A DNA stretch of 64,000 nucleotides from Mesorhabditis belari (Eukaryota > Nematoda > Chromadorea > Rhabditida > Rhabditidae): NCBI GenBank assembly GCA_958450365.1, contig CAUEEP010000753.1, positions 987,413 through 1,051,412 on the forward strand, written 5' to 3'. Below, piece by piece: positions 20,566-62,300 of this stretch. The position numbers and the translations under genes are program-made. Each line of letters opens with the position of its first letter. The stretch's first letter is position 1. The notes under the pieces were generated by a model. That model had not been told where the DNA came from and did not search any database. It saw nothing but the letters and a program-made list of their open reading frames with translations.

Positions 20566-20599
20566 TTGGCCAATCTCGTATCAAATCTCTTTACTTTTT

Positions 20600-23229: not shown

Positions 23230-26200
23230 ATGGCCTCCTCGTCTTCTTCGTCGGCGCCGCCACCACCCGACTATCTGCACACGACGGCGCCCACTCTGCG
23301 CTCGACGCAAACACAAATGGCCAATGGATTGACCGTGGATTTAGTGTCAGCGGCTCAGGTTTGTCGAAAAATTGTCGAAAATCGCAATCCTGGCACGCAC
23401 AAGAGATTTTAAACGAACTAAATTGCAAAGATTTTCAAAAATGACGAAGTTGGTTTTTTCGAATTTCATTCACTTCTCGATTTCTGAAAAAAATTACAAA
23501 AATTTTCTCGAAAATCAGAATTTTTTTGCTTATCTGGATGTCACATTAGCTGAAAATAAGATTTAAAAAAATTAAAATTGAGTTTGAAAAAAATCGAGTT
23601 TAGCAAAAATCTCGAAATCCTGAAAAATCACGAAAAACCCGAAAATTCGAAATTTCAGCGTGAAGCAAACTTTTTGCGAATGATCGATCGGAAAGCGCCA
23701 TTGTTGTACGAGCCGGATGTGGTATGGCTGAAAATCGAAAACCAGAAACAATTCTGACAATTCCAGGTGAATCAGGCGATCCGGCGATACGAGAAATACT
23801 GGCTACCGATGCAAGTAAGTCGATCCCTCAAAAAATTCGCATATTTTAAAGGGTTTTTCTTGAAATTTCTGAACTTTTTACTCATTCTGGAACGCACGAC
23901 ACAGCTAGAGATTCGAGTTTTCAATTTTTTTTTGGAATATCTGACTTTTCGATTTTCGGTGTTGCCGTTCTTCCCGATTTCTCGGCTGTCGCTCAAGCTA
24001 GGGCCCCAAATTTTTGGCAATAGCTTTTTTGGAACGCACGTAACATTGTGAAATTGATATTCTTTGGAAAATGGCACTTTTAAAAATTAGGACTTGAGGT
24101 TGATCGGACAAAAGTACTGTAGACAAGCGAAAAAGTTTAAAAAGCCTTAAATGCAAATTTCTCCATGACAACAGGCACGGTGCGTTCCAGAAACGCAAAA
24201 ATAAAAAAAAAAATGATAACTTTCTCGGAACACTTTCGGTTTAAATGCTCAAACTGGTTTCACTTAGTTGAAATAATTTAAAAAGCCTTAAATGCAAATT
24301 TCTCCATGACAACAGGCATAGTGCGTTCCAGAATCACAGAAATTCAAAAAAAATTCATAACTTTATCGGACTTCTACCGGTTTAAATGCTCAAACTTGAT
24401 TCACTTAGCTGAGAAAGTTTAAAAAGCCTTAAATGCAAATTTCTCGATGACAACAGGCACAGTGCGTTCCAGAATCACAGAAATTCAAAAAAAATTCATA
24501 ACTTTATCGAAACACTTTCGGTTTAAATGCCCCTTAAATGCAAATCGCATAATCACTAGCTCATTGGCTTCCGTGCGCCCCAGGATTTCCAAAAAATCCT
24601 CGAGAATTGAATTCCCGAATTCCAGGCCCGACATCCGGACATCAACGTGATTCCTCCATTGGACGTTCACTGGGTAAGGGAAATGATCGAATTTCTGATA
24701 ATACTTATATAGTGTGACTTCCAGAATGCTACTTTTGACGATTTAAAAAGCTTATCCAGTCATGTAGCTCGATAATCAGAAACATTCAGATCTGGCACAC
24801 TCATATGCTCTCTCCATTGCACTACCACGAGGTAATTTTCATTTCTTATTTCTGCCTGACATCCAGGATTTCCCTTTTTTAACCTTAATTTTCTTTTAAA
24901 CACATCATATTGCATAAAATCGGCTTGATCAGGGTTTGCTGCTTTTCTCAACGTTTGGTGCAATAACTTTTCTTGTTTTTCTGATTTTCTCTGATTCTGG
25001 ATGGCACCGAAATTTTCTAGCCATCCGGAAACCGAAAAATAGCCTTGAGGATATTTTTGCTTCTTTTGGATCTTGAGGATTTAGCAGGTTGGACCAGGTT
25101 GGACCCTCAAGGACCAGGTCCAGGTTGGACCTTCAAGGGCCAGGTCCAGGTTGGACCCTCAAGGGCCAGGGCCAGGTTGGACCCTCAAGGGCCAGGCCCA
25201 GGTTGGACCTTCAAGGGCCAGGTCGGACCCTCAAGGACCAGGTTCAGGTTGGACCCTCAAGGGCCAGGCCCAGGTTGGACCCTCAAGGGCCAGGGCCAGG
25301 TTGGACCCTCAAGGACCAGGTCCAGGTTGGACCCTCAAGGGCCAGGTCCAGGTTGGACCCTCAAGGACCAGGTCCAGGTCGGACCTTCAAGGGCCAGGTC
25401 GGACCCTCAAGGACCAGGTCCAGGTTGGACCCTCAAGGACCTTTTGCTTAAAATAGCTAGGATTTAGAGTCAGTCTGCCCGTAAAGCTTTCCAAAATAGG
25501 GCCAATACATCTCTGAGAAATGGGAAGAAGCCTGGGAAAAGGAAAGAAGAAAAGGAAAGAAGAAAAGGAAAGAAGAAAAGGGAAAGAAGCCCGATCAATG
25601 TCTTGGCCACATTCTTTTTTTTCGTGTGTCTTTCTTTTCTTTTGGCTTTAAGGCATTTCGGTTGATGCTGAGGAAGAGGGGTGACACGTGAAAGGAAAAT
25701 AAGCGGCTGAGGGACTGAAAGATGTTGGGGAGGCTCGACTATTCGAACTTCGACCGTTGCAAGCAATCCAGTGCCAAACAAACCAGCAATCCAGCAATCC
25801 AGTAGAGGAATTGAAGCAAGAACTTTAAGGACTCTAAGGAATCTAAGTTGCCTCCCAGGTCACCCAATTTTCAGAAAATTATCTAAAAACCCTGAAAGCT
25901 GTAGCTAAAAAGCGCCCAATCTTTTGACCTACAGTACTCCTTACAGCCCATTTACTGTAAATCGCCGAGTAAACCATTTAGGACTCTAAGTTGCCTCCCA
26001 GATCTCCCAATTTTCAGAAAATTATCTTCAAATCCTGAAACCTGTAGCTAAAAAGCGCCCAATCTTTTGACCTACAGTACCCCTTACAGTCCATTTACTG
26101 TAAATCGCCGAGTAAACCATTTAGGACTCTAAGTTGCCTTCCAGATCGCCCAGTTTTCAAACAGTTATCTTCAAATCTCAAAATCTGTAGCTTAAAAGCA

Positions 26201-29200
26201 CCCAATCTTTTCGAAATCAATTTTGATCCGTTGTGCACTCGGATTTTAGGTATGATGACTCTAATTATAAGAGGCCAAATCAGGCCCAAATCTGCCCAAG
26301 ATATAAGCCTTGGTTAACAACGAGGCCCAGAATAGCCAAATCTAGCTAGGTTTTTGAATTCTGGATCAAAAAATTATGCAAGATACCGAATTGCTAAGGA
26401 AAAATCGAAAAATTGACGTTTAAGTGGGCTTTTTTCCAAGCTCTATCTCAATTCTGGATGTCAGTATAGCAAAATTTGAAATCAGAATCAAAAATGGATG
26501 ATTTTAAGATTTTTGAGGTTTTGGTCAAGTGGTAGAGCGCTTGGTTACAAGGCGAACGCCCTCCCCCCCTGGCCCGGGTTCGAGTCCCCTTGCTGCCAAA
26601 ATTTTTTTCTTTTTTTGATTTGTTCAAAATTTTGAGCTTTGAAATGTTTCTAGCTGTAAGCACAAAGCCAAAGATCAAAGCTAGATCATTTAGCTGTTGA
26701 GTTGGACCAAAATAACCCACCCAAATGTTTTGATGTTTCCTTTGTGTTTTGTGATGTTTTGACACAAGAAATCCCTTATCAAGAAGTCATATTTTTCATG
26801 TTTTTCCTCAAAGTTCTTGATCTCTAATGAATCGGTGATTAGGAGAAGAAAGAAAAAAGAAGAGAGGATGACGGGTGATCGATGGACGCCGAGAGAAAAG
26901 AGCTATGGCCTCCTGATCAAGAGATCATCCTGACACCTCAAAAATCGACTTGACAAGTGTTGTGCAGTCCAGCATTGAGAATGGCGCAAGAAATTTTTCA
27001 ATCACGCTTCATGGTCGCCGAGAAAATCGTCCATTCTGCTACTGCCACCAATGCTCACCCACTACTCCAGCCCCCGCGGCCCCCCAACCTGCCCCATCCT
27101 CTCCGTGCCTTCCAGAATTCGCATTCCCCTACATAGCGATCCGCTAAGTCTTTTCCTTTTCTCTTTTTTGAAGCCAGCTCTCTTTTCTCACCCCATACGG
27201 CCAAAAGCAATTCGCTCCGAGTGCTCCTCGCTCCTCCTCCTCTTTTCCTTGCCACATACAAATAAGGGGGAAGCCTAGAGGGCTCGAGTGAACCCCTCTT
27301 TGCATTTATTTAAGAAAAAAAAGGGAAATAATTGGAGAGATCGGGGAATCCCCGGGAAAATACGGGAATTAGAGGGAAAAAGATAAAAACCGCTCGTGAA
27401 TACAGTAATCCTGGGAGGCACACTTGGTACTGGATATCGGGATTTTGAGGAATCTGTCGGTTTTAGTTTGTGACTCTTACCACGATCATTTAAGCTGAAT
27501 TCTTGAGCAAAACTAAAAAGATAACCAGGTTTACAGTAATCCTGGAAGGCACACTTGCTATAGGAATTCTGAGAAAACTGATATTTGACACTGAACTATT
27601 CGGTCATCACGGTCCATCCAGGGTCCATTTCTGACTTGTTCCCAATCCACATTTCACCTATTTTTCTTTAATAGTCGTCTCCTGTGACCTCCAGAACTCA
27701 TCTTTCTTCCCGTTTAGACTCTTTCAAAAACTCAGAAACCAAGAAAAACTGCCCAGTCCTGTTTTGGTTCTTGGTTTTGGTCATTCGTCAAGTCGGAGAG
27801 AGGCTTTTAAGCGAAAAAAGCAGGAAAAGAAGGCGATTCTCTCAGAAAGGAGTCTTTACTTGATAAAAGCTCAAAGCTCAGATGTGTATAATCCTTAAAA
27901 ATAGAGATTTACACTTAAAATCATTCGTGAAAGCTTTCCCCGCCATTTCTGACTCATACAGTAAGCAAAACTCAAATCTAACCGGAGATCCAGTAATCCT
28001 GGAGGTCACACAAGATTTTCCAATATTTAAAATGGCAAATATTCAAAGTTTTCCCATGGCGCAGTTGGAGTGCGTTGGTTCACGGCGAATGAATGAGGGT
28101 TCGATTCGGCCGGAAAACCTCAAACTAGCCAAAAGAATTCAAACGGGCCAGCAAGCTCAGATGTGTATAATCCTTGACACCAAAACATCCTTGAGCTTCC
28201 CCCATTTCTGACCAAGAAACGAATCCTGAGGTCACACAAGATTTTCCAATATTTAAAATGGCAAATATTCAAAGTTTTCCCATGGCGCAGTTGGTAGTGC
28301 GTTTGGTCCACGTGCGAATGAATGAGGGTTCGATTCCGGCTCCTGTAAAACCTCAATACTAGCCTTAAAAATGAAATTTTCATTTAACGTGCGTTCCAGT
28401 TCAAAGCTCAGATGTGTATAATCCTTAAAAATAGCGATTTACACTCCAAATCATCCTTGAAAGCTTTCTCCGCCATTTCTGACTCATACAGCAAGCAAAA
28501 CTCAAATCTAACCGGAGATCCAGTAATCCTGGAGGTCACACAAGATTCTCCAATATTTAAAATGGCAAATATTCAAAGTTTTCCCATGGCACAGTGGTAG
28601 TGCGTTTGGTCCACGTGCGAATGAATGAGGGTTCGATTCCGGCTTGTGTAAAACTCTATTATTAGCTTTAAAAATGAAAGTTTCATTTAACGTGCGTTCC
28701 AGATCGAACACTGGCACGTCATTTCATTCTCAAAACCCCAAAGAAACCTAAAATCTAGCCTCAACACAAAAAAATGTGTCAACTCATTGAAAATTTCTTT
28801 CTCGCCTTCATTCTTTTTTGATTTTTCTTAGGGAAAATGCTCAAAAAGGCCATTTTGAAGGAAAGACGGGCATAAATCAAAGGATTCTTTGTCTCTTTTT
28901 ACCCTTTTCTTTTCAACAAACCTTCAGGCAAACGAAAAACGCTTTATATCCACCCTCAAGAATTTCCGAAATCACCAATAGCTATCCTGGAAGTCACACT
29001 AGAAAATGGGAATCTTAGACAAAAGAAATAAAGAGATGACCCGTATGGCGCAGTGGGAAAATTCATGGTAGCAGGCGATCGACCCTCGGGGCCACCCAGG
29101 TTCGAGTCCTCCCACGAGCAAAAGTGCAAAAATTTTTTCTAGTTCAGCGTTTTTTTTCTAGCTCAACATTTAAAGTGCATTCCAGCTTGCTCATTTTTCG

Positions 29201-32200
29201 AATTTTTGACTTTTGAAGTTTGTTTGATGGTCGGGAACTTGGTCATTCTCAAAACGGCTCAAGTTACAGAGAAATTTTTGCTTGGAAAACGAGGGGCAAG
29301 GGAATTCTTTCAACATTCTTGTTCTAGTTTCAAGTTTTGATTGTCTAATGACGATAGACTAAACAGAAAAATAGAAAATAGTGAAAATTGGAGTGATCCA
29401 GTTGGAGTATTGTAAAAATGTTAAATATCAACAATATCGAAAATTTTCTTTTTCCAGAACCTAGTGTGAGCTCCAGGATTACGAGATTTTTAACTAAAAA
29501 CCATTTTTTTTAATAAATTCATTGAGAATTTTGAGTCAACAGATTCGACCACCTCAATCCCTAAAAATCCCCTCGGATTTAATTAAAAAAATCCAATTGC
29601 CTTCCAGGATTACCGAATCAAAAATCAGAAATCGATTTCGAAACGTTTTATGTGGCTAAAAAAGAGCCAATCTTTTTTTCCAAACCTTTTTTCCAACTCA
29701 ACTAGTGCACCAGATCGATTGTGTTTCTGGAAATTCTCCAAGAAAGTGATTCTTTCTTCTTTGGACTCCACAACGCCCGAAAATGCTCAAATTTCGCTCA
29801 TTTCGCTCATTTAGCTCATTTCGGCGCTTTTTTTCGCACCAGAGTTCCCGATTCGGAAATTTTCGGGGAAAAAAGAAAGAAAAAGTTGGAAAGCAGAAAT
29901 TTGAACGCTTTCCAAAGCAGAGATCAATGATCTGATTTTGAAATTTTGAAAAAATCAAAAAGAAAAAATTTTTGCAGCAAGGGGACTCGAACCCGGGCCA
30001 AGGGGGGAGGCGTTCGCCTTGTAACCAAGAGCTCTACCACTTGACCATGACCTCGAAAATCTTAAAATCATCCATTTTTGATTCTGATTTCAGATTTTGC
30101 TATACTGACATCCAGAATTGAAATAGAGCTTGAAAAAAAGCCCACTTAAACGTCAGTTTTCCGAGCTTTTCCATCAGTCAACGAATTTTGAGTGATTTTC
30201 GTGAATTTTCGGATCTTTTTCAGATCTTTCGGTTTTTTAAAGAAACCGAAATGAATTAAATGTATAAAAAGGCTTCCCTAATATATTGCAAGCCCTGATT
30301 TTAAAAGGATTTCTAAAAATTTCGGAAGTTTTTGAGATTTGAAGGGCTCTTCATTGACATTCTTGAACGGACTAAAGATTGTTTTTTTTAAGAATAAAAC
30401 TTTAGGGCCCAATTTTTAGGCCAAACTCTCATGTGACCTCCAGGATTCACAAATTAAGTGCTGAATTCTTTCAAAAGTCCCCATTTTTTCGAAAAATTGA
30501 GCCGGTTAGGATCCGGCTCGGACACCTTCTCTCAATTCAAGCCCAGACTTCTCCCAAACCTCCTAGCAATCAAATTGCGTTCCAGATCGGCCAATTTAAG
30601 TCGAGAAAAATTTTCTGATCAAGCGGATTTTTTTAAATCCACCCAATCTTTTGTCGAGATTCAACAAATTGGATTCTCGCCTCCTTTGTGTTTTTTTTTT
30701 TTTTTTCTTTTTTCTTTTTGAGAAAATCAGAGAACCCTTCATAAAATTGAGCAAATTCACTGAGTTATTTGAGAGAAAAGAGCGAAAAGAGGAAATAAGG
30801 AATTGAAAAAAAATTGAATTCTTTAAAATCCTTTGAAAATTCTTTAAAATCAACGACGAAAATTCAGGACTCAGAGAAAATTTGCGGAAAAGTGATCGAT
30901 CACAAGCTATTATCCTCCGATGAGATCCAGAAGAGGTGAATTTTTGAGAAGAAAGTCTTTAAGGCAAGAAGCCAGCAAGAAATTTGACCAGTCCTGAAAC
31001 TCCGGCTCTTCGAAAGCTCTTCGAAGCTCTAGCGACTTAGTGCCGTGACTTCTGGGCATTTTGAGTTGAAAATCTTTCAAGCTGGATATCACATAAGCGT
31101 TCTGAACAAAAATTTACACAATAATTCAAAAAAGAAAATTATTTTATATTTTTTGATATTTTTTGATCTATTTTGATATCAAAAATTGAAAAATTTCAGA
31201 ATTTAAAAATTCGAGAAAATAAAACGGCCAATAGGTCTCGTGACTTCCAGGATGAAAGAATATTCTAGATACGAGGCCTCAGTGCGCGCTTGGGACGAGT
31301 ATTGTAGCCCGGAGCCGTACGACTTCTTGGCCTCGCCCACCCCGGCGGCCACCTACGAGCCACAGTCAAGCTACGACATCGCGGGCGCTGTCCAGAGGCA
31401 AAGGAATTTCAATTATCAGGTAACTAAGCCAATTTTATAGTAATTCCGCACTTTCCAGGCCTCTCTACCGCATTACACGTCGACGAAATTCTTGAGCGAC
31501 GCCGTGCGCCGATATATTCAAGTAAGCGACATTTCTAGCGATTCAAGAAAGCGCATTGCTTGAGTTGGAGGTCACAAGAACTAGTTAGAGTAGGTTGAGA
31601 CAGGTTGAGACAGGTTTTGGTAGGCCTAGGCTAGCCGGTGGCACTTGCCCCCAGCTCCGACCCACTCCAACCTACAATCTCCCCCTTTGAGCTGAGATTC
31701 TTTTAAGCTGGAACGCACAACACCTTCTCCGATCAAAAACTCTTTCAGTTCTTGCTTTTAAAGCAAACCTATCATGACCAATTCTTCACACCCAGCTACG
31801 ACCCATTCCAATCTACAAACTCCCCCTTTTGGAGCTGAGATTCCTTTAAGCTGGAACACACAACACCTTTTCCATGAAACAAATCTTTCAGTTCTTGCTT
31901 TTAAAGCAAACTTATCATGACCAATTCTTGACACCTAGCCCCACCCAACACAACCCCTTTTGACCAGATTCCTTTGTGACGCCAACACCTTTTGAAGTTT
32001 TCTTTTGCTTTTAAGAAACTTATCATGACCAATTCTTGACACCCTGCTACGACCCATTCCAATCTACAATCTCCCCCTTTTGAGCTGAGATTCCTTTAAG
32101 CTGGAACGCACGACACCTTTTCCAATCAAAAAAAATCTTTCAGTTCTTGCTTTTAAAGCAAACCTATCATGACCAATTCTTGACACCCTGCTACGACTTC

Positions 32201-35200
32201 GACATCATCTGGCACACTCATCAGGTAGGCTCAGGACAAATCAATTGTTATCAATTGCTCAATCAATTGTTCTATCAATTGTTATTTCTAGGTCCATCCG
32301 CTTAATTATCAACGAGACTGCACGGCGATCTTCGGAAATCTGTTGAAGCACGATGATGGGGTAAAAATCGAAAATTTCGAAAATCGCCAAAATGAAATCG
32401 ACAATCTGGAACGCACGGAAGAAGCTAGATTAAGAATTCTTTCAAAAAAACGATTTTAAGTTTCGAGCTCAAAGGCTCAATCGGTTAGCGCATTGTTTGC
32501 CAATCTGGAAGCGAGGGTTCGATCCCTAGCCCGAAAAATCGGCGATCTGGAACGCACGGAAGAAGCTAGATTAAGAACTTCAAAAAAAAACAACTTCTAA
32601 GCTTCGGGCCCAAAGACGCAATCGGTTAGGGCATTGTTTACGAGTTTTGAGTCGAGGGTTCGATTCCTTTACCCGAAAAATCGTCAATCTGGAACGCACG
32701 GCACAATCTAGATTAAGGGTTTTCCAAAAAAAACAACTTCTAAGCTTCGAGCTTAAAGGCTCAATCGGTTAGCGCATTGTTTACCAGTCTGAAGTCGAAG
32801 GTTCGATTCCTTAGCCTAAAAAATAGGTTATCACAAAGAAAAAAGACAATTTTAGGTAAACGATCGTTCGAAAGGCAGCAAATTGCTAAAAGGGGAGGCG
32901 CTGACAAAGAAATTGTGGAGCACCCATTTCGATGAACCATTTTGGCGACGCGGATGCATGTACAGGTGCGGAATTTGTCTCAAAATTAAAAAATACCGTC
33001 TTCTGGATGTCACATAATAGTTTAGAATAGAAAAAGTGTATAAATCAAAGGTTTTTCGAAGGTGGTTTTGTGCAAAAATGATCGAGGCTTGTAGTCGGCT
33101 ATACGGTGTCCTACAAATATTTAACGTGAAGATTACTGTATTCTGGATGTCACCGAATAGTCTGGAATAGAAAAAAGTGTATAAATCAAAGGTTTTTCGA
33201 AGGTGGTTTTGTGCAAAAATGATCGAGGCTTGTAGTCAGCTATACGGTGCCCTACAAATATTTAACGTGAAGATTACTGTATTCTGGATGTCACCGAATA
33301 GTCTGGAATAGAAAAGTGTCTAGATCAAAGGTTTTTCGAAGGTGGTTTTGTGCAAAAATGACGAGGCTTGTAGTCAGCTATATGGTGACTACAAATGTTT
33401 AACGATTACTGTATTCTGGAAGTCACACAACAGTTTAGGATGGGAAAAAATGTATAGATCAAAGGTTTTTCGAAGGTGGTTTTGTGCAAAAATGATCGAC
33501 GCTTGTAGTCAGCTATACGGTGCCCTACAAATATTTAACGTGAAGATTACTGTATTCTGGAAGTCACCGAATAGTTTGGAATAGAAAAAAGTGTCTAGAT
33601 CAAAGGTTTTTCGAAGGTGGTTTTGTGCAAAAATGATCGACGCTTGTAGTCGGCTATACGGTGAACTACAAATGTCTAACGTAAAGATTACTGTATTCTG
33701 GATGTCACACAAGAATTCTCGCCATTTAAACTCAATTTTCAGAGGCCATAACGCACCGGCGTTTCTCGGATTCGAGTCACAGGATTTGTCGAACATTGCG
33801 TACGGGGATTTGCACGTGCCGTCAATCGCGCTAAAGGTTTCTTGTTATGGATGGCGTTGCGTTGATTGGTGTGATGAAATTTCAATGAAATTGTTTGATG
33901 AAATCAAAATTCGTTCTCCAGGACATTCCCGTGCAACGCGAGCAACTCCGGCTAAAGCTGTGCTATGGGAACAAAAAAGTGACGACTTTCAACGCGGATC
34001 TCTCGCAGAAACAAGTACTTTTACTTTTACTGATTGATACTTTTACTATTAGTTTCTGTAAAATTGATCTAATTGATCGATTGGGTTGTCCAGTTATGAA
34101 TGCGCGTTTTTACTATTTTGTAAATTCGCTCAAGATATCGAAAAGATTTATATGAGTGTTATATATCATTCGAAAGCTGAAGATCTCCTCTGGAGCTGGG
34201 GGCGGGGGCGGGGGCTGGGGGGCGGGGGGCGGGAGAGAGCGGGGGGCTGGGAGGAGCGGGGGAGCAATTATCAAGATATCTTCTAGATATCTAATTATAT
34301 TAGGTTGTCCAGTTATCAACCCAATAATTGATCTATTGATTTAATTGATCTACAGTACCGAGCAAAAGTCTTGCAACATCACTTTTTCAAAAAAATCGAT
34401 GAAATTTTTTTATAGAAAATGCCACCCGTTCGTAAAGCTTTTTTGTTTTTAATTAAAATAATACATGTGCACTTTATTTACAAAAACAAATTTGAAGTTC
34501 AGCGTAAAACAAAAAAGTAAATGACAAAACTACTAAAAAATACCCTAAAACTGGGTGCAAAAGTCTTGCAACATTTTATGTTTCTCATTTTTATTGTTTT
34601 CAAATTTATTAATTTACACTAATTTTTGTTTTTTTCAGATGCCAGGTACCTACTTGACGACTCCCGAAAGAGAAAAATCATGAAAGCAAGAAAAAGGAAT
34701 TTCTCGAGCCGTTGTCTGCGATCTCTTCAAATGCGATCCTTCGACCGTTTCTCGCATTGTTTCAAAAGCAAAACAATTGACTTATGCACCGAAGAAAGAA
34801 GAAAGGACGGCCAAGAAGAACAACAGCAAAAGAGGATCGAATACTTGTGATGGCTCCAAGAAGGATCCGAACATGACATCAACTGAGGGAGCCGGCTGAT
34901 CAAGGATGTTGCAAACAAGGATATCTCTCGATGGACCGTTTCTCGACGATTGACTCAAGCAGGACTGTATAGCCGGCGGGCCTACGAAAGCCTTTGATGA
35001 CCGCTGGCCATAGGAAACAACGGCTCTATTCGCCAGGACGTACCAAAGTTGGACAAAGCAGGATTGGGCCAACGTGATTTTTGTCGATGAAACAAAAGTG
35101 GATATCTTTTCTCCAAAAGGCAACCACTTGATCAGACGACCCATTGGAAAGCGAATACTCCTTAAATATGTGCGACCTACAATGCGAGCTGGCGGAGGAT

Positions 35201-38200
35201 CAATCATGTGTTTTGGTAAGCCTTATTTCTAATAAATGCATTAATTTGTCTTTTTCTAGGGGCGATGACAAAAATTGGCAGGTCCGCTCGTCCTCGTCCA
35301 GTCAACCATGAATGCTCGCCAGTATATGGAAATACTAGAAGGATTCGACTTCCATTTACTCAGGATCACATGGCTCCTGAATGGTTTCTCTACCAGGACA
35401 ACTCGCCGGTCCACAAGAGCAAGCCATGATGGGTCGCACCGTGAATCTCTCAAATGGAGGAAAGCTCATCTCCCTGGATGGTTTGCCCTAATAATGTTTT
35501 GTTAGTCAAAGTGCCCCCATTCGCCTGATTTAAACGTTATTGAGAATTTATGGGCTTACGTGAAGGCAAAGTTACGAGGAAAAGACTTTCACACAAAAGT
35601 TGACTTATGGTTCTACATACGAAAAGTTTGGAGCTCAATTCGCCCAGCAATTCTTCACGAATTAGTCGACTCAATGCCTAAACGACTTAATGAAGTGATT
35701 TTGGCAAAAGGTGGACCGATTGAATATTAATTTTTGATGTTTCTGTAAAATGTTGCAAGACTTTTGCACCCAGTTTTTAGGGTATTTTTTAGTAGTTTTG
35801 TCATTTACTTTTTTGCTTTACGCTGAACTTTAAATTTGTTTTTGTAAATAAAGTGTACATATATTATTCTAATTAAAAACAAAAAAGCCCTACGAACGGG
35901 TGGCATTTTCTATAAAAAAATTTCATCGATTTTTTTGGAAAAGTGATGTTGCAAGACTTTTGCTCGGTACTGTATTGATTTAATTGCTCTACTTATGGCT
36001 CATGGGGTATCCAGGATGTCCCATAGATTTTCATTTTCATATAGTATGCTTTTTATGGGGTAAACCTTCGATGGGTATGGATTTAATGGGGTATCGTCGG
36101 GATGGGGTATCCATTAAAAGGATGGGGGTATCCTTCGGGCGTTTATAGAATGGGTTGCCTAGGAATACTTTCTGAAAAGGGAGCGTAGCGAGCCGCGCCG
36201 TCAGGCGCTTGCGGCGGAGCCGCTACCGGGCCGAGTTGATGACTGGCGGAGCCGCTACAGGGCCGAGTTGATGACTGGCGGAGCCGCTACCGGGCCGGTT
36301 GTGATGGCGGAGCCGCTACCGGGCCGAGTTGATGACTGGCGGAGCCGCTACCGGGCCAATGGAATTGGGGTGGAGGGGGGACACCTATCTTTGCTTGATT
36401 ACTTATTCCGGGCCGTCAGGCGTACCGGACCGTCAGGCGCTAGTCTTTTGATTCAAGACCAGTTGAGGCTACCCTTTTAAGGCATCCAAGCTACCCTATC
36501 TAGCTGAAATTGTGCTAATCATTAGCTGCTGGTGATTCTAATAACATCAAGAACATCAAGAACATCAAGAACCGCATTCTCTCTAATAGTAGTCCACCGA
36601 GCCGAGTTGATAACTGGTTTGCGATGATTCCAAAAAATTGGCAAGAGTTCTTTTATTTTAATGACGTTTTTTCTTCGATCTGGATATCACACTAGAATTT
36701 TTAGGATTCCGATTTTCGATTTTCACCAAAAAATTTGTCCTCGATGAGTACAGCTAAGAGTTTGCGATGATTCCGAAAAATTGGCAAGAGCTGATTTCTT
36801 GAAATGGCTTTTTTTCTTCGATCTGGATGTCACACTAGAATTGCTAGCATTCGGATTTTCGATTTTCGCCAAAACAGTTATACTTGATACGGCAGCCAAG
36901 AGTTTGCGATTATTCCGAATAATTGGCAAGAGCTCTTTTAGTTTCATTGCGTTTTTTCTTCTACCTGGATGTCACACTAGAATTGCTAGCATTTAGATTT
37001 TCGATTTTCAGCAAAATAGATTTCTACTCGATTTCTACTTGTTCAGGTGACGAAATCGGGTTTCTCTCTCGTTTGGCAGCCAACCGACAGCTCATCCTCG
37101 GCGTCAATCGTGAAATTTCCATTCGAGCGTAAATGCTCGAAAGATTTATTCGTTGAATTGGAAGTAAGTTCTTTCATTTTTCCCGAAAATCAGATATTCA
37201 GCTATTCGACAAAATGTTCCTGCAGAAGAAAGATCTCGTTCGGCTGATCGGTCGAGTCTCTTTGGATGATGTGAGTTCCAGGATTGGCAAAAAAAGTCAA
37301 AAAACAAGCCTTTTTTCACAAAGCAGCGAAGAATTTTGACCAAAATGGTGTTCACCGCGTTTTCGTAAACGCTAAGCATCTAGTGCACGAAATTCTCAAT
37401 TTATCTTCTAAGCTGGAACTCACACAAGCCATTTTTGTTGATTTCAGCTCCTCCCGCCATCAAATAGCAAATCCGCTCACAACGTCGCCGATGTACCGCT
37501 ACAGACAAAAGATTACGAGCCAGAATTGAACGCTCGGGTTACGGTAACCACCAGGTGAGTGCTACAGTCATGCTTGGGTTACGGTAGCTTCTTTTCAGAC
37601 ACTTTTTTGATCTTTAGTGTCACGCTCAATCGAGAATTGCAACTGTTGGCTGGGGAGTTTCAGGTGAGAGCTTGGGATTACTGTAGGGATACTGTAGCGA
37701 AATCAGTCAGGCACAGAGTACTGTAACGGAATACTGTAGTCAAGTCTTACATTTCTTCACTTTTTTCGAGTAAACGGGACCTTTTTTAGGCGAATTTGTT
37801 GACCCTCGACAAAAGATTGGGTGCATTTTAAAAAATCCGCTTGATCAGAAAATTTTTCTCAACTCAAATTGGCCGATCTGGAACGCAATTTGGTTGTTAG
37901 GAGATTCGGGAGAAGTCGGGGCTTGAATTGAGAGAAGGTGTCCGAGCCGGATCCTGATCGGCTCAATTTTTCGAATAAATGGGGACTTTTGAAAAAATTC
38001 AGCACTTAATTTGTGAATCCTGGAGGTCACATGAAAGTTTGGCCTAAAAATTGGGCCCTAAAGTTTTATTCTTAGAAAAACAATCTTTAGTCCGTTCAAG
38101 AATGTCAATGAAGAGCCCTTCAAATCTCAAAAACTTCCGAAATTTTTAGAAATCCTTTTAAAATCAGGGCTTGCAATATATTAGGAAAGCTTTTTTATAC

Positions 38201-45300: not shown

Positions 45301-45399
45301 TCCCTTTCATCGCCGAGAAGGGCCGGTCGAAATTCGGAATCTACGCATACGATTCCCCTATGTGAAAACATTTTTGAAGCTCTACGGCCTTTCCTAAGG

Positions 45400-54222: not shown

Positions 54223-54329
54223 GATTCAAGTGTTGTCAAATGATTGATTGATTTATTGAAAATTGAACAATAATATTTACGTTTAGAAATCTTGTCTTAT
54301 TCATTTACTCAAAGCATAGCACTGGTTAA

Positions 54330-54382
54330 GTGTCTTTTTATCTTAATCGGAAGGTCGAGGGTTCGAACCCCACATGCGACAT
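54330..54382 (+). repeat. 3' half of a tRNA-like element
   Basis: TTAATCGGAAGGTCGAGGGTTCGAACCCC-type sequence with a good T arm, but no 5' half. Confidence 0.5.
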
Positions 54383-54889: not shown

Positions 54890-55075
54890 TTTGCGAGAAA
54901 ATTGAAGAATCCTGTGCAAGGGAAGAATCCTGTGCAAGGGAAGAATCCTGTGCAAGGGAAGAATTCTGTGCAAGGGAAGAATTCTGTGCAAGGGAAGAAT
55001 CCTGTGCAAGAGAAGAATCCTGTGCAAGGGAAGAATCCTGTGCAAGGGAAGAATCCTGTGCACTAGAAAGAGAGC
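54890..55075. repeat. 18-bp minisatellite GAAGAATCCTGTGCAAGG
   Basis: About nine copies. The same segment occurs once, unexpanded, in sister repeats at 57868 and 61496. Confidence 0.95.
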
Positions 55076-56290
55076 CTTTTACGTGAGAGCACAAAGTACG
55101 CGTAGACCCGTGTTCGAAAGCTATTCGAGTGTCTGCTGCCTGTCTGTCTGCAATTTTTCGAAATCTTCCAATAAATTGATAAAGTTTTTCAAATTTTCTC
55201 CCAATCTGGAACGCATGTTATACAGCTAACTGAAAATTTTTCGAAAATTCCAACTTTAAAAATGATCTTTGAGATTTTCAAGTACTCGGTGGATTTTCGG
55301 GTTAAATATGGCGAATTCTAAAATCCGATAACTTTTTTCGAGGTTCTGGAAGGCATTCTTGAAAATTTGCTAATCATTTTTGAGAAATTCGAAAAAAAAT
55401 TCACGTGAGATTGATCGAGGGTTCGATCCCGGGTGCGGTCAAAAATTTTTGTAAAAAACAAAAATCGATTCTTTTCTGTAAATTTAGCATTTCTACATAG
55501 TCAACCATCCAAATTGCGCCTATTCTCAAGTGAAATTTCCGAGAATTTTTCGAAAATTCCAACTTTGAAAGTGATTTTTGAGATTTCAAGTTTGAGCGTT
55601 TACGTGAGAACACAAAGTACGCGTAGACCCGAAAGCTGTTCGAGTATAATTTTTCGAAATCTTCCAATAAATTGATAAAGATTTTCGAATTTTCTCTCGA
55701 TCTGGAAGGCATGTTATCCAGCTAATTAAAAAATTTTCGAAAATTTGGCATTTAAAAATGGTCGTTGAGATTTTCAAGTACTCGGTGGATTTTCGGGTTA
55801 AATATGGGGAATTTAAAAATCCGATAACTTTTTTCGAGGTTCTGGAATGCATTCTTGAAAATTCGCTAATCATTTTTTTGAGAAATTCGAAAAAAATTCA
55901 CGTGAGATTGATCGAGGGTTCGATTCCGGGTGCGGTCAAAAATTTTTGTAAAAAACAAAAATCGATTCTTTTATGTAAATTTTAGCATTTCTACATAGTA
56001 AATCATCAAAATTGTGCTCATTCTCAAGTGAAATTTCTGAAAATTTTTCGAGAATTCCAACCTTGAAAATGATTTTCAAATTTTTGAGATTTTCAAGTAC
56101 TCAGTGGATTTTCGGGTTAAATATGGGGAATTTAAAAATCCGACAACTTTTTTCGAGGTTCTGGAATGCATTCTTGAAAATTCGCTAATCATTTTTGAGA
56201 AATTCGAAAAAAATTCACGTGAGATTGATCGAGGGTTCGATCCCGGGTGCGGTCGAAATTTTTGGCAAAAAGCCAAAATCGATATTTCAT
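55076..56290 (+). repeat. B-box dispersed repeat, three copies
   Basis: Unit order: ACAAAGTACGCGTAGACC; CTGGAACGCATG-type motif; GGTGGATTTTCGGGTTAAAT; a second motif 140 bases after the first; then GAGGGTTCGATCCCGGG and GTGCGGTC ending in a T-run. Motif pairs are 55206/55346 and 55702/55842; the third copy has only 56161. B-boxes are near 55420, 55919 and 56236. Confidence 0.9.
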
Positions 56291-56589
56291 CCAGGGAAAC
56301 TGGTTTAATTACCCGAATATGCTAATAAAAGAGTCGATTTTTGAATTTCCCTCAAATCCCCGTTTCTAAAGAAGAGTCGTCGCAAAAAAATGAGCCGCTT
56401 GGGAATTTTTTTTTTCAAATTTTTGAGATTTTCAAGTAGTCGGTGGATTTTCGGGTTAAATATGGCGAATTTAAAAATCCGACAACTTTTTTCGATGCCT
56501 CTAGCAAATGCCAACCGTTTTTCTAGGGTTTTCGGCGATGCTAAATCGATTGCTAATATTTTTAGAGTCACCGCCTTTGCAGAGGCAAT

Positions 56590-57060
56590 TCTAGAGGCCC
56601 CGTCCACTGGCCCCGAGCCCGTATAGCCTTCTTTGAGCCTTGTTTTTCTTGTAAGCAGTAAGCTTGAGCTTATTTTTGAGGATCCGACGCAATGAGGTGC
56701 TTGAAATCGCCATTTTCTTTGCTATCTGTCTTGCCGAATGGTTTGGCTTCTTCCGAATTCGGATGTTTGTCTTTGTGACGATAGTTGAGCGTCTACCGGC
56801 CATCAGCAATTGTTCCCGTAGCTTCGTAGCGTTGAATAGTGCGGAAAATGGTGCTTCTGTTGACTTTAAGACGCTCTCCGGCGGTGCGACTCCATTTTGG
56901 GATTGGGATTTGGGTTGATTTTGGGTTGATTTGGGTTGATTTGGGTTGATTTGGGTTGATTTGGCTTGATTTTGGGTTGATTTGGCTTGATTTGGCTTGA
57001 TTTGGCTTGATTTTGGGTTGATTTTGGGATTTTGGGACGATTTCAACTCGTTTCTCCAAT
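56590..57060 (-). pseudogene. Tc1-like transposase N-terminal fragment
   Basis: On the minus strand two overlapping frames give RLKVNRSTIFRTIQRYEATG and ARQIAKKMAISSTSLRR, two helix-turn-helix-like parts around a basic segment. The upstream side dissolves into a GGGTTGATTT minisatellite (56925-57040). No catalytic part. Confidence 0.7.
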
Positions 57061-57124
57061 GTACTTTTGTACCAGATGAAGACTATCTAAATAACTGGAC
57101 TGCTGAGGGCGAACTCACAAAATA

Positions 57125-57300
57125 CTTGCGTGTACTTGCGGTACTTGCTGTCCTTGCTGTCCTTGCTGTCCTTGCTGTCCTTGCTGTCCTTGCTGTACTT
57201 GCTGTACTTGCGGTACTTGCTGTACTTGCTGTCCTTGCTGTACTTGCTGTACTTGCTGTACTTGCTGTACTTGCGGTACTTGCTCGTGTCCGTCCTCGTG
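57125..57300. repeat. 9-bp minisatellite CTTGCTGTC/A
   Basis: About 19 copies of CTTGCTGTA, CTTGCTGTC or CTTGCGGTA. A shorter GAATTTTGTT array lies at 57547-57597. Confidence 0.95.
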
Positions 57301-57839
57301 TTACTTTCACAAGCTAGGGCATTAAAATCTAAAAATCCATAATGATCCTTGTTAGAATGACAATATTATAATTCTGTATTGACTAACATCTTGGGCTTGT
57401 CATTTCTCGATTTGGTCGATCATTTTAAGCTTCTTCGTGTCACCGAAAGTTTGCGAGAGTGAGATGCGTTTTGTTGGCTTTTTCTCGAGCTCTTGATCCT
57501 CTATGCGTGCCAGATGGCTCAGTTTTTCATTTAGAAAAGCAGATTTTGTTGAATTTTGTTGAATTTTGGTGAATTTTGCTGAATTTTGCTGAATTTCTCG
57601 ATTCTTGAGTGAACAAATGATTTCCGCGAACTCCGGAAAAATAATCGCATTTTATGAGATCGCATGAGACAAAATTTGAGTCTTTTCCAGGGCCAAAAGC
57701 TCACAAATTGATTCAATTTTTGAAATTCTGATTCCCAGGGGAATTGTTGAGGATTTTCGAGGGATTTCTGAAAGTTCACACATTTTGACGACTCATTTGT
57801 TTTGCTTTCATTTATTCCGAGCTCTACGTAAACGCTCTC

Positions 57840-58860
57840 CTTCTAGCGCACTGGATTTGCGAGAAAATCGAAGAACCCTGTGCACTAGAAAGAGAGCGTT
57901 TTACGTGAGAGCACAAAGTACGCGTAGACCCGAGCTAGAAAGCTATTCGAGCGTGACTTTTCGAAATCTTCCAATAAATTGATAGAGATTTTCAAATTTT
58001 CTCCCGATCTGGAACGCATGTTATTCAGCTGATTCAAAATTTTTCCAAAATTTGCCATTTAAAAATGGTCTTTGAGATTTTCAAGTACTCAGTGGATTTT
58101 CGGGTTAAATGTGGCGAATTTAAAAATCTGACAACTTTTTTCGAGGTTCTGGAATGCATTCTTGAAACTTAGCTAATCATTTTTGAAAAATTCGAAAAAA
58201 ATTCACGCCAGATTGATCGAGGGTTCGATCCCGGGTGCGGTCAAAAATTTTTTTATAAATCAAAAATCGATCTTTTTATGTAAATTTCACATTTCTACAG
58301 GGTAAATCATCAAAATTGCGCCCATTCTCAAGTGAAATTTCCGTCAAATTCGCCAGGATTCGATTGATTTTTCATAAATTCTCTCATAAAGAAAGCTATT
58401 CGAGCTTAATTTTTCAAAATCTTCCAATAAATTGATAAAAATTTTCAAATTTTCTCTCAATCTGGAAGTCATCTTAGCCAGCTATTTAAAAATTTTTCGA
58501 AAATTTGACATTTAAAAATGACCGTTGCGATTTTCAAGTACTCGGTGGATTTTCGGGTTAAATATGGAGAATTTAAAAATCTGACAACTTTTTTCGAGGT
58601 TCTGGAAGTCATTCTTGAAAATTTGCTAATCATTTTTGAAAAATTCAGAAAAAAAATTCACGTGAGATTGATCAAGGGTTCGATCCCGGGTACGGTCAAA
58701 AATTTTTGGCAAAAAGCCAAAATCGATATTTCATCCAGGGAAACGGGTTTAATTACCCGAATACGCTAATACAAGAGTCGATTTTTGAATTTCCCTCAAA
58801 TCCCCGTTTCTAAAGAAGAGTCATCGCACAAAAATGAGCCGCTTGGGAATTTTTTTTTTG
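57840..58860 (+). repeat. B-box dispersed repeat, two copies
   Basis: Motif pairs 58009/58149 and 58462/58602 (140 each); B-boxes near 58219 and 58677. The second copy is followed by a tail shared with 56240-56410. Confidence 0.88.
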
Positions 58861-58997
58861 CTTTTTCAGCTTTATGCTGAATTTTTAGACTCACTCTCGA
58901 TCTTTTTTTGGGTTTTTTTTTTGAGCTAAAGCTAAAGCTAAACTCTTTTAAGCTAAAGCTAAAGCTCAGAAAACTTCCGGTTTTTTGATCTATTCTA

Positions 58998-59557
58998 GAT
59001 TTGTGACGAAAACATCAGTCGGTTTTTTTGTTGGCAATTTAGAGTTTTTCTTGTTTATCTTAGCCCTAATCCTTTTATTTTGATTGTATTAACTATCATT
59101 CGATTCAGAATAAAATTGCGCGTCGAATGACACCAAAATCAACTCAAAATGTAATATCCACGCAAAGTTATGAGGCAAAAAGTTAAGTCCGGTCCATTGT
59201 GGGTTTTAAGCCAATTACTTTGTTTGGATATTACATTTTGAGTTGGTTTTGGTATCATTCAAGGCGCAATTCTATTCTGCGTTGAATGACACCAAAATCA
59301 ACTCAAAATGTAATATCTACGCAAAGTTATGAGGCAAAATGCTAAGCCCCGCCTATAATGGACCGGACTTAACTTTTTGCCTCATAACTTTGCGTGCATA
59401 TTACATTTTGAGTTGATTTTGGTGTCATTCGACGCGCAATTTTATTCTGAATCGAATGATAGTTAATACAATCAAAATAAAAGGATTAGGGCTAAGATAA
59501 ACAAGAAAAACTCTAAATTGCCAACAAAAAAACCGACAGATGTTTTCGTTACAAATC
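58998..59557. mobile_element. 560-bp nested foldback element
   Basis: Outer arms (58998-59105 and 59450-59557) are inverted copies with TTATCTTAGCCCTAATCC. Inside, a segment with ACTCAAAATGTAATATC occurs four times in alternating orientation. Non-coding. Confidence 0.88.
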
Positions 59558-59784
59558 GAATCTATTTAGATATGATTTTTTACAAATTTTGTTTTTAGAA
59601 ATGGTCTGCTTGATCGGGCTTTGCAGGGTGAGTTTTTCTCCGTTTATTTTAGTAAGCTTTAATGAAAGGATTTTGAAGAAAAGAGAATTGGGAAAGATTT
59701 TCGAAAGCTTCAATCTTTGAACTTTTCACACTTTTGAGCTCTTTCTTTTGAGTAATTGAACCGGATGATCGATTGAATTGAAGC

Positions 59785-60150
59785 TAAGCTTTGAGCCAAA
59801 ACATTGAACCAAAGCTTTGAACCAAGACATTGAGCCAAGACATTGAACCAAAGCCTTGAACCTAAGCCTTGAACCTAAGCCTTGAACCAAGACATTGAAC
59901 CTAAGCATTGAACCAAAGAATTGAACTAAAGCCTTGAGCCAAAGCCTTGAACCTAAGCATTGAACCAAAGCTTTCAACCAAGACATTGAACCAAAGAATT
60001 GAACCAAAGTTTTGAAACAAAGCCTTGAACCAAGACATTGAACCAAAGCCTTGAACCTAAGCATTGAACCTCAGCTTTGAACCAAAGCCTTGAGCCAAAG
60101 CCTTGAACCCAAGCATTGAACCTAAGCCTTGAACCAAAACAGCTTTGCTT
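59785..60150. repeat. 12-bp minisatellite TTGAACCAAAGC
   Basis: About 30 degenerate copies (TTGAACCTAAGC, TTGAACCAAGAC). The minus-strand frame across it comes from the 12-bp period. Confidence 0.9.
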
Positions 60151-60239
60151 TCCTTTGGTCCAGATTAACCAAATTTTTATACCAGTTTTTGACCCGACTC
60201 AATCACCCAAATGAATCCCGATTTGCTCGCGGAAATGCA

Positions 60240-60560
60240 CGCTTTCTGGCATACTCCAGCGGGAAGGTTGGCTCAAAAAGTGCTTGACTGAAATTCCATA
60301 TTGAAGGAATCTGATCAATCCAAATTTCTCTGTGACATCCAATTAGAATATCGCCAAAAGATTAGAAAGCCTACTCTTTCTAGAACAAGAGTTACTCCAG
60401 CGGAAAAGTTGGCTCTAAAAGTGCTTGACCGAAATTCCGTATTGCAAGCATTTGCTCAATTCAATTTCTAGTGTGACATCCAATTAGAATATAGCCAAAA
60501 TCTTAGACAGCCTACTCCTTCTAAAACAAGAGTTATACCAGCAAGGAGTTCCACCAGCAA
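60240..60560. repeat. 141-bp two-unit array
   Basis: GTGACATCCAA at 60332 and 60473 (141), with ACTCCAGCGG and AAAGTGCTTGAC in both units. Confidence 0.8.
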
Positions 60561-60899
60561 GAAGGTTGACTCCAAAAGAAAATCAAAGGATTTCAATGCC
60601 CCCAGACAATTTCAGAAATCAAAAAAAACACAATATTTACTCAAATATCCAATCCCGTCGGATCAAATTTCACTCAAAATTTTTTGAAATTTTGAAAATT
60701 AGAAATTTTTTGATTTTCTTCCAATTAAACGATGATTTTTCTAGTGATTTTCCGGAAAAAATTCGAAATGGTAAGCTTTTAAATGAGAAATTTAAGCTCA
60801 AAAACGCTTTTCCAAGTGTCTTTGAGCTTTTCGACTCAAAAATCAACTCCTTTCCTTTCCACTTTCTTTTGTTTACCCCGCTAGGATTAGTGAATCGAG

Positions 60900-62300
60900 T
60901 TCGAGCGTAATTTTTCGAAATCTTCCAATAAATTTATAAAGATTTTCAAATTTTCTCTCGATCTGGAAGTCATGTTATTCAGCTAATTGAAAATTTTTCG
61001 AAAATTTGACATTTAGAAATGGGCGTTGAGATTTTCAAGTACTCAGTGGATTTTCGGGTTAAATATGGAGAATTTAAAAATCCGACAACTTTTTTCGAGG
61101 TTCTGGAATTCATTCTTGAAAATTTGCTAATCATTTCTGAAAAATTCGGAAAAAAAATTCACGTGAGATTGATCAAGGGTTCGATCCCGGGTACGGTCAA
61201 AAATTTTTTTAAAAATTAGATATCGATCCTTTTATGTAAATTTAACATTTCTACATATTAAACCATCAAAATTGCAAGTGTCTTTGAGCTTTTCGACTCA
61301 AAAATCAACTCCTTTCCTTTCCACTTTCTTTTGTTTACTCCGCTAGGATTAGTGAATCGAGTTCGAGCGTAATTTTTCGAAATCTCTCAATAAATTTATA
61401 AAAAATTTCAAATTTTCTCTCGATCTGGAAGTCATGTTATTCAGCTGATTCAAAAATTTTCGAAAATTCCAACTTTGAAAATGATCTTTGAGATTGAAGA
61501 ATCCTGTGCACTAAAAAGTTAGCGTTTACGTGAGAGCACAAAGTACGCGTAGACCAGAAAGGTATTCGAGAGTAATTTTTCGAATTCTCTCAATAAATTA
61601 AAAAAAATTTTCGAATTTTCTCCCGATCTGGAACGCATGTTATTCAGCTGATTCAAAATTTTTCGAAAATTTGACATTTGAAAATGGGCGTTGAGATTTT
61701 CAAGTACTCAGTGGATTTTCGGGTTAAATATGGGGAATTTAAAAATCCGAGAACTTTTTTCGAGGTTCTGGAATGCATTCTTGGATTCATTTTTGAGAAA
61801 TTCGAAAAAAAATTCACGTGAGATTGATCGAGGGTTCGATCCCGGGTGCGGTCAAAATTTTTTTGTAAATCAAAAATCGATATTTGATCAATTCAATTGA
61901 TTCAAGTGTTGTCAAATGATTGAGTACGCACAAAGTACGGGTAGACCTGAGCTAGAAAGCTATTCGAGCGTGATTTTTCGAAATCTTCCAATAAATTAAT
62001 AGAGATTTTCAAATTTTCTCCCGATCTGGAACGCATGTTATTCAGCTGATTCAAAATTTTTCGAAAATTTGACCTTTGAAAATGGGCTTTGAGATTTTCA
62101 AGTACTCAGTGGATTTTCGGGTTAAATATGGCGAATTCTAAAATCCGAAAACTTTTTTCGAGGTTCTGGAAGGCATTCTTGGAAATTTGCTAATCATTTT
62201 TGAGAAATTCGAAAAAAAATTCACGCTAGATTGATCGAGGGTTCGATCCCGGGTGCGGTCAGGAATTTTTGGGAAAAAGCCAAAATCGATCTTTTTATGT
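60900..62300 (+). repeat. B-box dispersed repeat, three copies plus fragments
   Basis: Motif pairs 60963/61103, 61628/61768 and 62026/62166 (140 each); an unpaired motif at 61426. B-boxes near 61181, 61834 and 62238. Confidence 0.88.

What the first reader, a model, noticed from the sequence alone, without database searches (positions are those of the whole stretch)
23534..62176. Split motif CTGGA-N3-CAY recurs in unrelated repeats with a shared 140-143 bp unit
In one orientation or the other the motif occurs at 23534, 24180, 24321, 24462, 24573, 24714, 24856, 25848, 25991, 26134, 27411, 27542, 27684, 32406, 32547, 32689, 33003, 33143, 33284, 33416, 33557, 33698, 36680, 36823, 36965, 37878, 38020, 39297, 39438, 39580, 39722, 55206/55346, 58009/58149, 60332/60473, 61628/61768, 62026/62166 and more. 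Spacing is mostly 140-143 bp although the array bodies do not resemble each other. The three middle bases vary (ACG, TGT, GGT, AGT, ATG, ACT), mostly array by array. Two fixed halves around a variable gap suggest a protein-binding or junction site; the length is close to a nucleosome. GRDP introns over about 100 bp nearly all have it (1, 3-6, 8, 10, 11, 13, 15, 17, 19, 22, 24, 25; not 21 or 23). Introns under about 90 bp (2, 7, 9, 12, 16, 18) do not. An introner-like element is one explanation.
Basis: partly seen in the sequence, partly recalled or inferred. Interest (0 to 1): 0.92.

Follow-up and report, generated by a model that had tools for sequence, protein, structure and literature searches.

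The report
Genome-wide DNA box spaced like nucleosomes
A short DNA signal occurs thousands of times in the genome of a nematode whose chromosomes have no single centromere, spaced roughly one nucleosome length apart on either strand inside otherwise unrelated sequence, as if one protein used it to line up nucleosome-like particles.

Summary
The window lies in the Mesorhabditis belari assembly, a holocentric nematode. CTGGANNNCAY occurs 21,598 times against 2,742 for the reversed pattern. Same-strand pairs 128-158 bp apart number 6,388 against 79, peaking at 141-145 bp; many are tandem copies. Opposite-strand pairs, which simple duplication cannot make, are also constrained: inward pairs number 30 / 569 / 267 in 31-bp bins from 97 bp, controls 0 / 0 / 1, in steps of about 10.2 bp up to 158 bp. 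In 36 families A/T dinucleotides form a 10-bp ladder phase-locked to the box over 85 bp upstream (0 of 2,000 nulls), not seen around six other short words. Bodies differ because units copy local DNA: one array is built from a GRDP intron-exon boundary. Best reading: a protein bound at the box registers nucleosome-like particles, most likely holocentromere-type chromatin like the Meloidogyne 19-bp-box repeats. That role is inferred, not shown. Introner and single-satellite readings are not supported.

The parts
21672..21969 (-). array of 142-bp units with box CTGGATGTCAC; inverted relative of the 32994-33708 array; the unit search found no copy outside the window
24129..24530 (-). array of 141-bp units, boxes 24180, 24321, 24462 (CTGGAACGCAC)
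24573..24583 (-). one-mismatch box (CTGGGGCGCAC), first of a three-box chain in successive GRDP introns
24626..24673 (+). GRDP exon ending ..NVIPPLDVHW, between boxes 141 bp apart
24714..24724 (-). exact box (CTGGAAGTCAC), 141 bp from 24573
24790..24831 (+). GRDP exon IWHTHMLSPLHYHE (boundaries read by eye), between boxes 142 bp apart
24856..24866 (-). one-mismatch box (CTGGATGTCAG), 142 bp from 24714
25837..26211 (-). array of 143-bp units with degenerate boxes; inverted relative of 39205-39744
27542..27694 (.). inward box pair, 142 bp, no body homology
28389..28539 (.). outward box pair, 140 bp, no body homology
31650..32197 (+). array of about 143-bp units made of copies of a GRDP intron 3' end plus up to the first 54 bp of the exon; boxes 31708, 31851 and 32101 (one irregular copy lacks it)
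32144..32224 (+). source GRDP exon (..LLLKQTYHDQFLTPCYDFDIIWHTHQ), PF07173
32395..32824 (+). array of 141-bp units, boxes 32406, 32547, 32689; units carry tRNA-like words
32994..33708 (+). array of 141-bp units, six boxes, one step of 132 bp
36617..37032 (+). array of 143-bp units; family with matches on 21 contigs
37271..37423 (.). outward box pair, 142 bp, in one predicted 177-bp GRDP intron; the left box overlaps the predicted 5' splice site
39205..39744 (+). array of 141-bp units with degenerate boxes
55206..62176 (+). region with seven same-strand pairs exactly 140 bp apart, in copies of one repeat; the two boxes of a pair have unrelated surroundings

Best explanation
CTGGANNNCAY (wider consensus about AWYCTGGADNKCAYNNNA) is the binding site of an unidentified sequence-specific protein in Mesorhabditis belari that registers nucleosome-like particles. 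Same-strand neighbours sit about 142 bp apart, one particle's worth of DNA; opposite-strand neighbours use the same class and others about one helical turn away (near 121, 131, 150-153 bp). A 10-bp A/T ladder fixes the rotational setting of the DNA upstream of each box. Arrays grow by tandem duplication of whatever host DNA lies between boxes, intron and exon included, and correctly spaced copies are kept, so bodies are unrelated while box and spacing persist. Shown: genome-wide excess, spacing classes in all three arrangements, lower limit, phase-locked ladder, exon capture. Inferred: the protein, the particle, selection on spacing. The likeliest role, also inferred, is specialised (CENP-A-like) chromatin along the holocentric chromosomes, a rhabditid analogue of the Meloidogyne 19-bp-box repeats.
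For: Box excess 21,598 against 2,742. Same-strand pairs 6,388 against 79, 77 of the 100 listed at 141-145 bp. Inward pairs 30 / 569 / 267 at 97-127 / 128-158 / 159-189 bp, controls 0 / 0 / 1. Outward pairs (CTGGAWGTCAC on one side): 28 rows at 97-127, 430 rows at 128-158, controls 0 (a place can give two rows). Discrete classes: inward 129-133, 139-143, 148-154 hold 8, 18 and 22 of the 50 listed, 120-122 holds 13 of 30; best period 10.2-10.3 bp over 97-158, with 0 of 2,000 nulls as strong for 80 pairs and 1 of 2,000 for 75 after dropping near neighbours; outward 140-143 and 152-155 hold 34 and 31 of 74. A/T ladder upstream in 36 families: power 0.454 against a null 99.9% of 0.162, 0 of 2,000; scaled statistic 0.463 for the box against 0.005-0.042 for six other 5-mers, one of them CTGGA without the second half. 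Three boxes 141 and 142 bp apart lie in successive GRDP introns with two dissimilar exons between. Exon capture: three upstream copies at 91-92%. Species and holocentricity.
Against: No chromatin, CENP-A or protein-binding data were available. 142 bp is short for canonical nucleosomes with linkers. Many same-strand pairs are plain tandem copies: 13 of 21 in the window and 31 of 33 in the C5 stretches have homologous bodies, so the 6,388 overstates independent events. Opposite-strand pairs do not prefer 142 bp alone: inward pairs are as common at 148-154 and go on to 189 bp, outward pairs are split between 142 and 153. The inward ladder is not significant at 159-189 bp alone (980 of 1,000 nulls as strong) and borderline for 97-189 pooled (6 of 2,000). 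The A/T ladder is weaker downstream (7 of 2,000) and absent at -140 to -86 (212 of 2,000). Distance lists show only the first contigs (100 of 6,388; 50 of 569; 50 of 267; 74 places of 430 rows), and dispersed families can repeat a distance. Sites are clustered (0 in 10 of 10 samples of C4 and distant C563), whereas a holocentromere might be more even. In C. elegans no specific sequence is tied to CENP-A (PMC9071541, passages).
Confidence: 0.55

Rival explanations
1. Box arrays are germline regulatory or anti-silencing DNA (like C. elegans periodic An/Tn clusters), and the box is a germline transcription-factor or insulator site rather than a centromere element.
For: The 10-bp A/T ladder is phase-locked to the box; boxes lie in introns of GRDP. 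Periodic An/Tn clusters can prevent transgene silencing in C. elegans (PMC7725773, start of abstract in the listing).
Against: Sites also form arrays outside the GRDP gene (55-62 kb; whether other genes lie there was not examined). Close-packed 142-bp arrays and spacing classes in opposite-strand pairs are not known features of such DNA as far as I recall; the papers could not be opened.
Confidence: 0.2
2. The units are short DNA transposons or introner-like elements whose terminal inverted repeat is the box; pairs are element ends and arrays are tandem insertions.
For: The outward pair 37271/37413 is a perfect 11-bp inverted repeat within one predicted 177-bp intron whose 5' splice site it overlaps; one outward pair on C5 has longer matching inverted flanks (L023); one unit family is dispersed over 21 contigs.
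Against: Bodies are unrelated between families (36 among 118 sites); one array is copied host intron-exon DNA; same-strand and inward pairs are constrained too; no target-site duplication was seen by eye in the flanks of the nine inverted pairs printed.
Confidence: 0.08
3. All arrays are diverged copies of one ancestral 142-bp satellite in which only the box is still recognisable.
For: Common unit length; one family is dispersed with matches 77-90% alike to the query unit; homologous bodies dominate in the C5 stretches.
Against: Unit body derived from a GRDP exon; dissimilar exons between boxes at 141 and 142 bp; opposite-strand pairs in the same spacing class; 13 of 26 phased pairs in the window without body homology.
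Confidence: 0.07
4. The box is a promoter element of small-RNA genes (an altered piRNA or snRNA motif), each downstream body being a different RNA.
For: Nematode piRNA motifs also stand in thousands, in domains or introns, before different sequences (PMC6436959, abstract and passages).
Against: The motif described there has a GTTTC core, which the box lacks; positions +15 to +49 carry at most 0.14 bits in 52 clusters, so no start-site signal at a fixed distance; a promoter would not need the spacing classes.
Confidence: 0.04
5. The box helps programmed DNA elimination, known in Mesorhabditis, by marking kept or lost DNA.
For: The genus eliminates DNA, satellites are a substantial part of what is lost, and motifs mark elimination sites in related genera (PMC13370393, passages).
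Against: Thousands of sites seem too many for break points; no elimination map was available here.
Confidence: 0.06

Closest known systems
Meloidogyne holocentromere tandem repeats with a conserved 19-bp box (Despot-Slade et al. 2021; not held, known here only through passages of PMC9673304 and PMC11538461)
   Same: Nematode, holocentric; short arrays of divergent families sharing a short box
   Different: Here the box is an 11-bp split core, a unit length of 141-145 bp recurs in unrelated families, opposite-strand pairs and stretches with exons keep the spacing, one unit copies a host exon, and an A/T ladder is phase-locked to the box. CENP-A association is unknown here, and the two box sequences could not be compared
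CENP-B box and CENP-B-box-like satellites (PMC3694981 abstract and one section, PMC9673304 passages)
   Same: A 17-bp box kept in otherwise dissimilar satellites
   Different: No convincing match between CTGGANNNCAY and the human CENP-B box as I recall it (not aligned here); no fixed opposite-strand spacing in what I read
Introners, some biased to nucleosome linkers (PMC9860276, passages)
   Same: Link between short intronic DNA and nucleosomes
   Different: Introners are families of similar introns; here bodies are unrelated and units also lie outside the GRDP gene
C. elegans meiotic pairing-centre motifs bound by HIM-8/ZIM zinc fingers (PMC8455136 and PMC9071541, passages)
   Same: Short motif enriched in chromosomal domains of a rhabditid nematode
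   Different: No one triplet per chromosome region here (the window alone mixes many); no 142-bp spacing in the passages read
C. elegans periodic An/Tn clusters
   Same: 10-bp A/T periodicity in nematode non-coding DNA (recalled; abstract start seen)
   Different: Not known to me to be phase-locked to a sequence box or to have a unit length

Membership tests
Meloidogyne-type box-bearing holocentromere repeats | Divergent repeat families share one short conserved box | tested here: met
   118 sites fall in 36 body families (a few are probably chance sites) that share the box and little else
Meloidogyne-type box-bearing holocentromere repeats | Host has holocentric chromosomes | tested here: met
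   contig identified as M. belari; 2n = 20 holocentric according to PMC10456839 (passages)
Meloidogyne-type box-bearing holocentromere repeats | Repeats bound by the centromeric histone | not testable with these tools
   needs CENP-A ChIP or CUT&RUN
Meloidogyne-type box-bearing holocentromere repeats | Same box sequence | not testable with these tools
   the paper is not held and the passages read elsewhere do not give the sequence
Introner | Family of introns with similar sequence | tested here: not met
   bodies unrelated; arrays also outside the GRDP gene
Introner | Element ends at the splice sites | tested here: inconclusive
   one predicted intron fits at its 5' end (37271); other boxes lie at varying distances from predicted splice sites
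Single satellite family | Monomers align over their whole length | tested here: not met
   13 of 26 phased pairs in the window without homology; exon-derived unit
Nematode piRNA (Ruby) motif | GTTTC core and a start site at a fixed distance downstream | tested here: not met
   core absent from the box by inspection; no fixed downstream signal in 52 clusters
DNA-encoded nucleosome phasing | 10-bp A/T periodicity in fixed phase to the site | tested here: met
   0 of 2,000 nulls for -85 to -4, weaker downstream, absent at -140 to -86; not seen at six other 5-mers
DNA-encoded nucleosome phasing | Particle found at that place in vivo | not testable with these tools
   needs MNase data

The most novel reading that the evidence does not exclude
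M. belari has a sequence-encoded address for holocentric kinetochore chromatin: a split box read by one DNA-binding protein that locks CENP-A-type particles of about 142 bp per unit in register, evolving by copying whatever local DNA (exons included) lies between boxes, so that a centromere specification system spreads through introns and other non-coding DNA without a satellite of its own.
Probability: 0.3. Interest if true: 0.95.

Novelty: new variant of a known kind. Interest (0 to 1): 0.82.

Why it matters
Holocentromeres of C. elegans and its relatives are thought to lack sequence specification. A short box that constrains particle-sized spacing genome-wide, on both strands and past exons, would give a concrete, testable DNA rule for holocentric or germline chromatin in a relative of C. 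elegans that also eliminates DNA. It also suggests how unrelated satellites can arise again and again under one spacing rule, with host exons captured as units, rather than by descent from one satellite.

Tried and rejected
Second box: fixed-position profiles gave a G at -59 (20 of 36 families) and weak signals at -68 to -57, but motif discovery did not find a convincing second box (25 sequences: 51.6 against nulls of 38.5-46.4 for that region, and the other three regions stood out from their nulls as much or more); it may be part of the A/T-G/C ladder. A TACNGTA element visible midway in some listed inward pairs on C77 and C90 is not at the midpoint around sites in the fetched sequence. Transposon with array-bearing inverted repeats: inverted duplications exist in the window, but the unit of the 33-kb array was found only in the window, so they look like local rearrangements. 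One domain per contig: suggested (99 rows on 21 contigs), but the family is spread more widely along contigs, so dropped. Periodicity beyond 158 bp: not supported alone, borderline pooled. Gene model: a simple home-made predictor that gave 44 exons; only exons I could confirm by frame and GRDP similarity were used, the rest (for example 25-31 kb) is unreliable. The first A/T test compared family means with single-sequence nulls; one search repeats it with matched nulls. The spacing tests use nulls that do not model relatedness between dispersed families; and only drop near neighbours (100 to 83 and 74 to 62 pairs; 80 to 75).
Full report
What was checked. The window holds 67 exact CTGGANNNCAY sites; first-order Markov sequences of the same composition average 2.6 and do not exceed 6 in 40 runs. 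The three-base gap is exact: 67 sites at gap 3 against 0-10 at the other gaps from 0 to 8, except 27 at gap 5, which was not followed up.

Whose genome. The window is C563:987413-1051412 of a 207.6-Mb, 714-contig assembly. Among the 120 listed matches to the window's ATP synthase alpha protein the most identical, 97%, is a Mesorhabditis belari protein from a contig of 1,354,379 bases, exactly the length of C563; my hand-joined query need not be error-free. M. belari carries 2n = 20 holocentric chromosomes (PMC10456839, passages), and programmed DNA elimination is described in its genus (PMC13370393, passages). C159 and part of C569 share a constant offset for several matches and may be two haplotypes, so genome-wide counts may count some loci twice.

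Genome-wide counts. The box occurs 10,666 + 10,932 times against 1,405 + 1,337 for the pattern read backwards. Same-strand pairs 128-158 bp apart number 6,388 against 79; 77 of the 100 listed are at 141-145 bp, and 53 of the 65 listed outside contig C5. In the range 161-191 bp there are 239 against 59, and many of the 100 listed are runs of closely spaced hits of the kind short repeats give. Duplication inflates the same-strand count: 13 of 21 such pairs in the window and 31 of 33 in the C5 stretches have homologous bodies.

Opposite-strand pairs. Inward pairs (box, then reversed box) number 30 at 97-127 bp, 569 at 128-158 and 267 at 159-189, with controls 0, 0 and 1. Outward pairs, counted with CTGGAWGTCAC on one side, give 430 rows at 128-158 and 28 at 97-127, controls 0 (a place can give two rows). 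Of those 28 rows, 22 lie at 103-105 bp on three contigs; on C77 they alternate with inward pairs of 177-180 bp, which add up to two units. Simple tandem duplication does not make opposite-strand pairs, so the spacing itself appears to be kept.

Spacing classes. Of the 50 inward pairs listed at 128-158 bp, 8 fall at 129-133, 18 at 139-143 and 22 at 148-154, and none at 134-138; 13 of the 30 shorter ones fall at 120-122. Over 97-158 bp the best period is 10.2-10.3 bp; 0 of 2,000 jittered sets are as strong for all 80 pairs and 1 of 2,000 for 75 after removing near neighbours. Outward pairs fall at 140-143 (34 of 74) and 152-155 (31 of 74). So 142 bp is one of several classes in opposite-strand pairs, not the only one. 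Between 159 and 189 bp alone no period is significant (980 of 1,000 nulls as strong). The listed places are the first contigs only, and families spread through the genome can repeat a distance; this is the main weakness of the test.

Rotational phasing. 118 sites (window beyond 21.4 kb plus stretches of C5 and C10) fall into 36 families by body similarity. With one sequence per family, A/T dinucleotides peak at about -3, -11, -21, -31, -42, -52, -62, -70, -80 and -91 from the box. The power at 10.0 bp over -85 to -4 is 0.454; 2,000 sets with each sequence shifted by up to 10 bp give a 99.9% value of 0.162 and none as high. Downstream (+12 to +94) the signal is weaker (7 of 2,000), and at -140 to -86 it is absent (212 of 2,000). 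On a scale corrected for number of sites the box scores 0.463 and six other 5-mers, among them CTGGA without the second half, 0.005-0.042. Three further patterns, two of them one-mismatch boxes, had only 3, 4 and 16 sites and cannot be judged.

Why the bodies differ. The 143-bp array at 31650-32197 consists of copies of a GRDP intron end, its splice acceptor and up to the first 54 bp of the following exon; three upstream copies match the real boundary at 92, 91 and 92% over 98, 88 and 51 aligned positions; the exon matches the GRDP-like family. At 24573, 24714 and 24856 three boxes (the outer two with one mismatch), 141 and 142 bp apart, sit in three successive introns with two dissimilar GRDP exons between. 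Of 26 phased exact pairs in the window, 13 have homologous bodies and 13 do not; seven of the latter are copies of one repeat at 55-62 kb and an eighth lies within it. In the C5 stretches 32 of 34 phased pairs of any orientation are homologous. The unit of the 33-kb array was found only in the window, that of the 36.6-kb array 126 times on 21 contigs.

Interpretation. A site that is asymmetric, kept in unrelated DNA, found at nucleosome-like distances on either strand, in classes about one helical turn apart, rare below about 120 bp, and with a phase-locked A/T ladder, is best explained by a protein that registers nucleosome-like particles. A unit of 142 bp leaves no linker for canonical nucleosomes; a particle wrapping about 120 bp plus a bound box would fit, which is why I favour CENP-A-type chromatin, but that step is inference. 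Prior art: according to PMC11538461 (passages) the only known centromeric repeat feature in holocentric animals is the Meloidogyne 19-bp box; PMC9673304 (passages) describes short arrays of five divergent families with that box; PMC9071541 (passages) says no specific sequence appears associated with CENP-A in C. elegans. Among the titles and abstract starts listed by my searches for Mesorhabditis none was about such a motif; the library holds only open-licence papers.

Limits. No chromatin or expression data and no second Mesorhabditis genome could be used, and about 290 kb of this one besides the window (partly overlapping it) was read; several C5 stretches were chosen because sites had been listed there. 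The gene model is rough outside the confirmed exons.

Noticed in passing
window 34351-35974: Insertion with 229-bp inverted ends 96% alike and weak, below-cutoff matches to Tc1/mariner-type transposase families, sitting inside the right arm of an inverted duplication.
   Followed up: no
window 20486-21969 and 33004-36408; 29931-30670 and 37793-38531: Local inverted duplications, pieces 85-97% alike, within the box-rich stretch; the two arms of the first pair hold different numbers of box units.
   Followed up: partly
window 28389-29175, 32406-32824, 55346-62300: tRNA-like A-box and B-box words (recognised by eye) inside several units, as in tRNA-derived SINEs, though neither ARAGORN nor Rfam calls a tRNA there.
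   Followed up: no
window 37271 and 31240: A reversed box coincides with a predicted 5' splice site (GTGAGTTCCAG at 37271) and another may end at a 3' splice site (31240) in GRDP.
   Followed up: partly
C77:45418-46702 and 51894-52431, C297, C701: Outward pairs at 103-105 bp; on C77 they alternate with inward pairs at 177-180 bp, summing to two units.
   Followed up: no
C5 (L022, L025, L027, L037, L038): Arrays in inverted order in repeated segments that also hold a 440-residue open frame in two copies and a frame with a radical-SAM-like cysteine motif (recognised by eye, not searched).
   Followed up: no
C159 and C569: Constant offset of 1,228,161 bases between several matches suggests two haplotypes kept apart in the assembly.
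   Followed up: no
C280, C372, C286: Spliced-leader copies in tandem with periods near 869, 960 and 1,546 bp.
   Followed up: no
window, CTGGAN5CAY: 27 sites at gap 5, far above the other gaps except 3; possibly a minisatellite.
   Followed up: no
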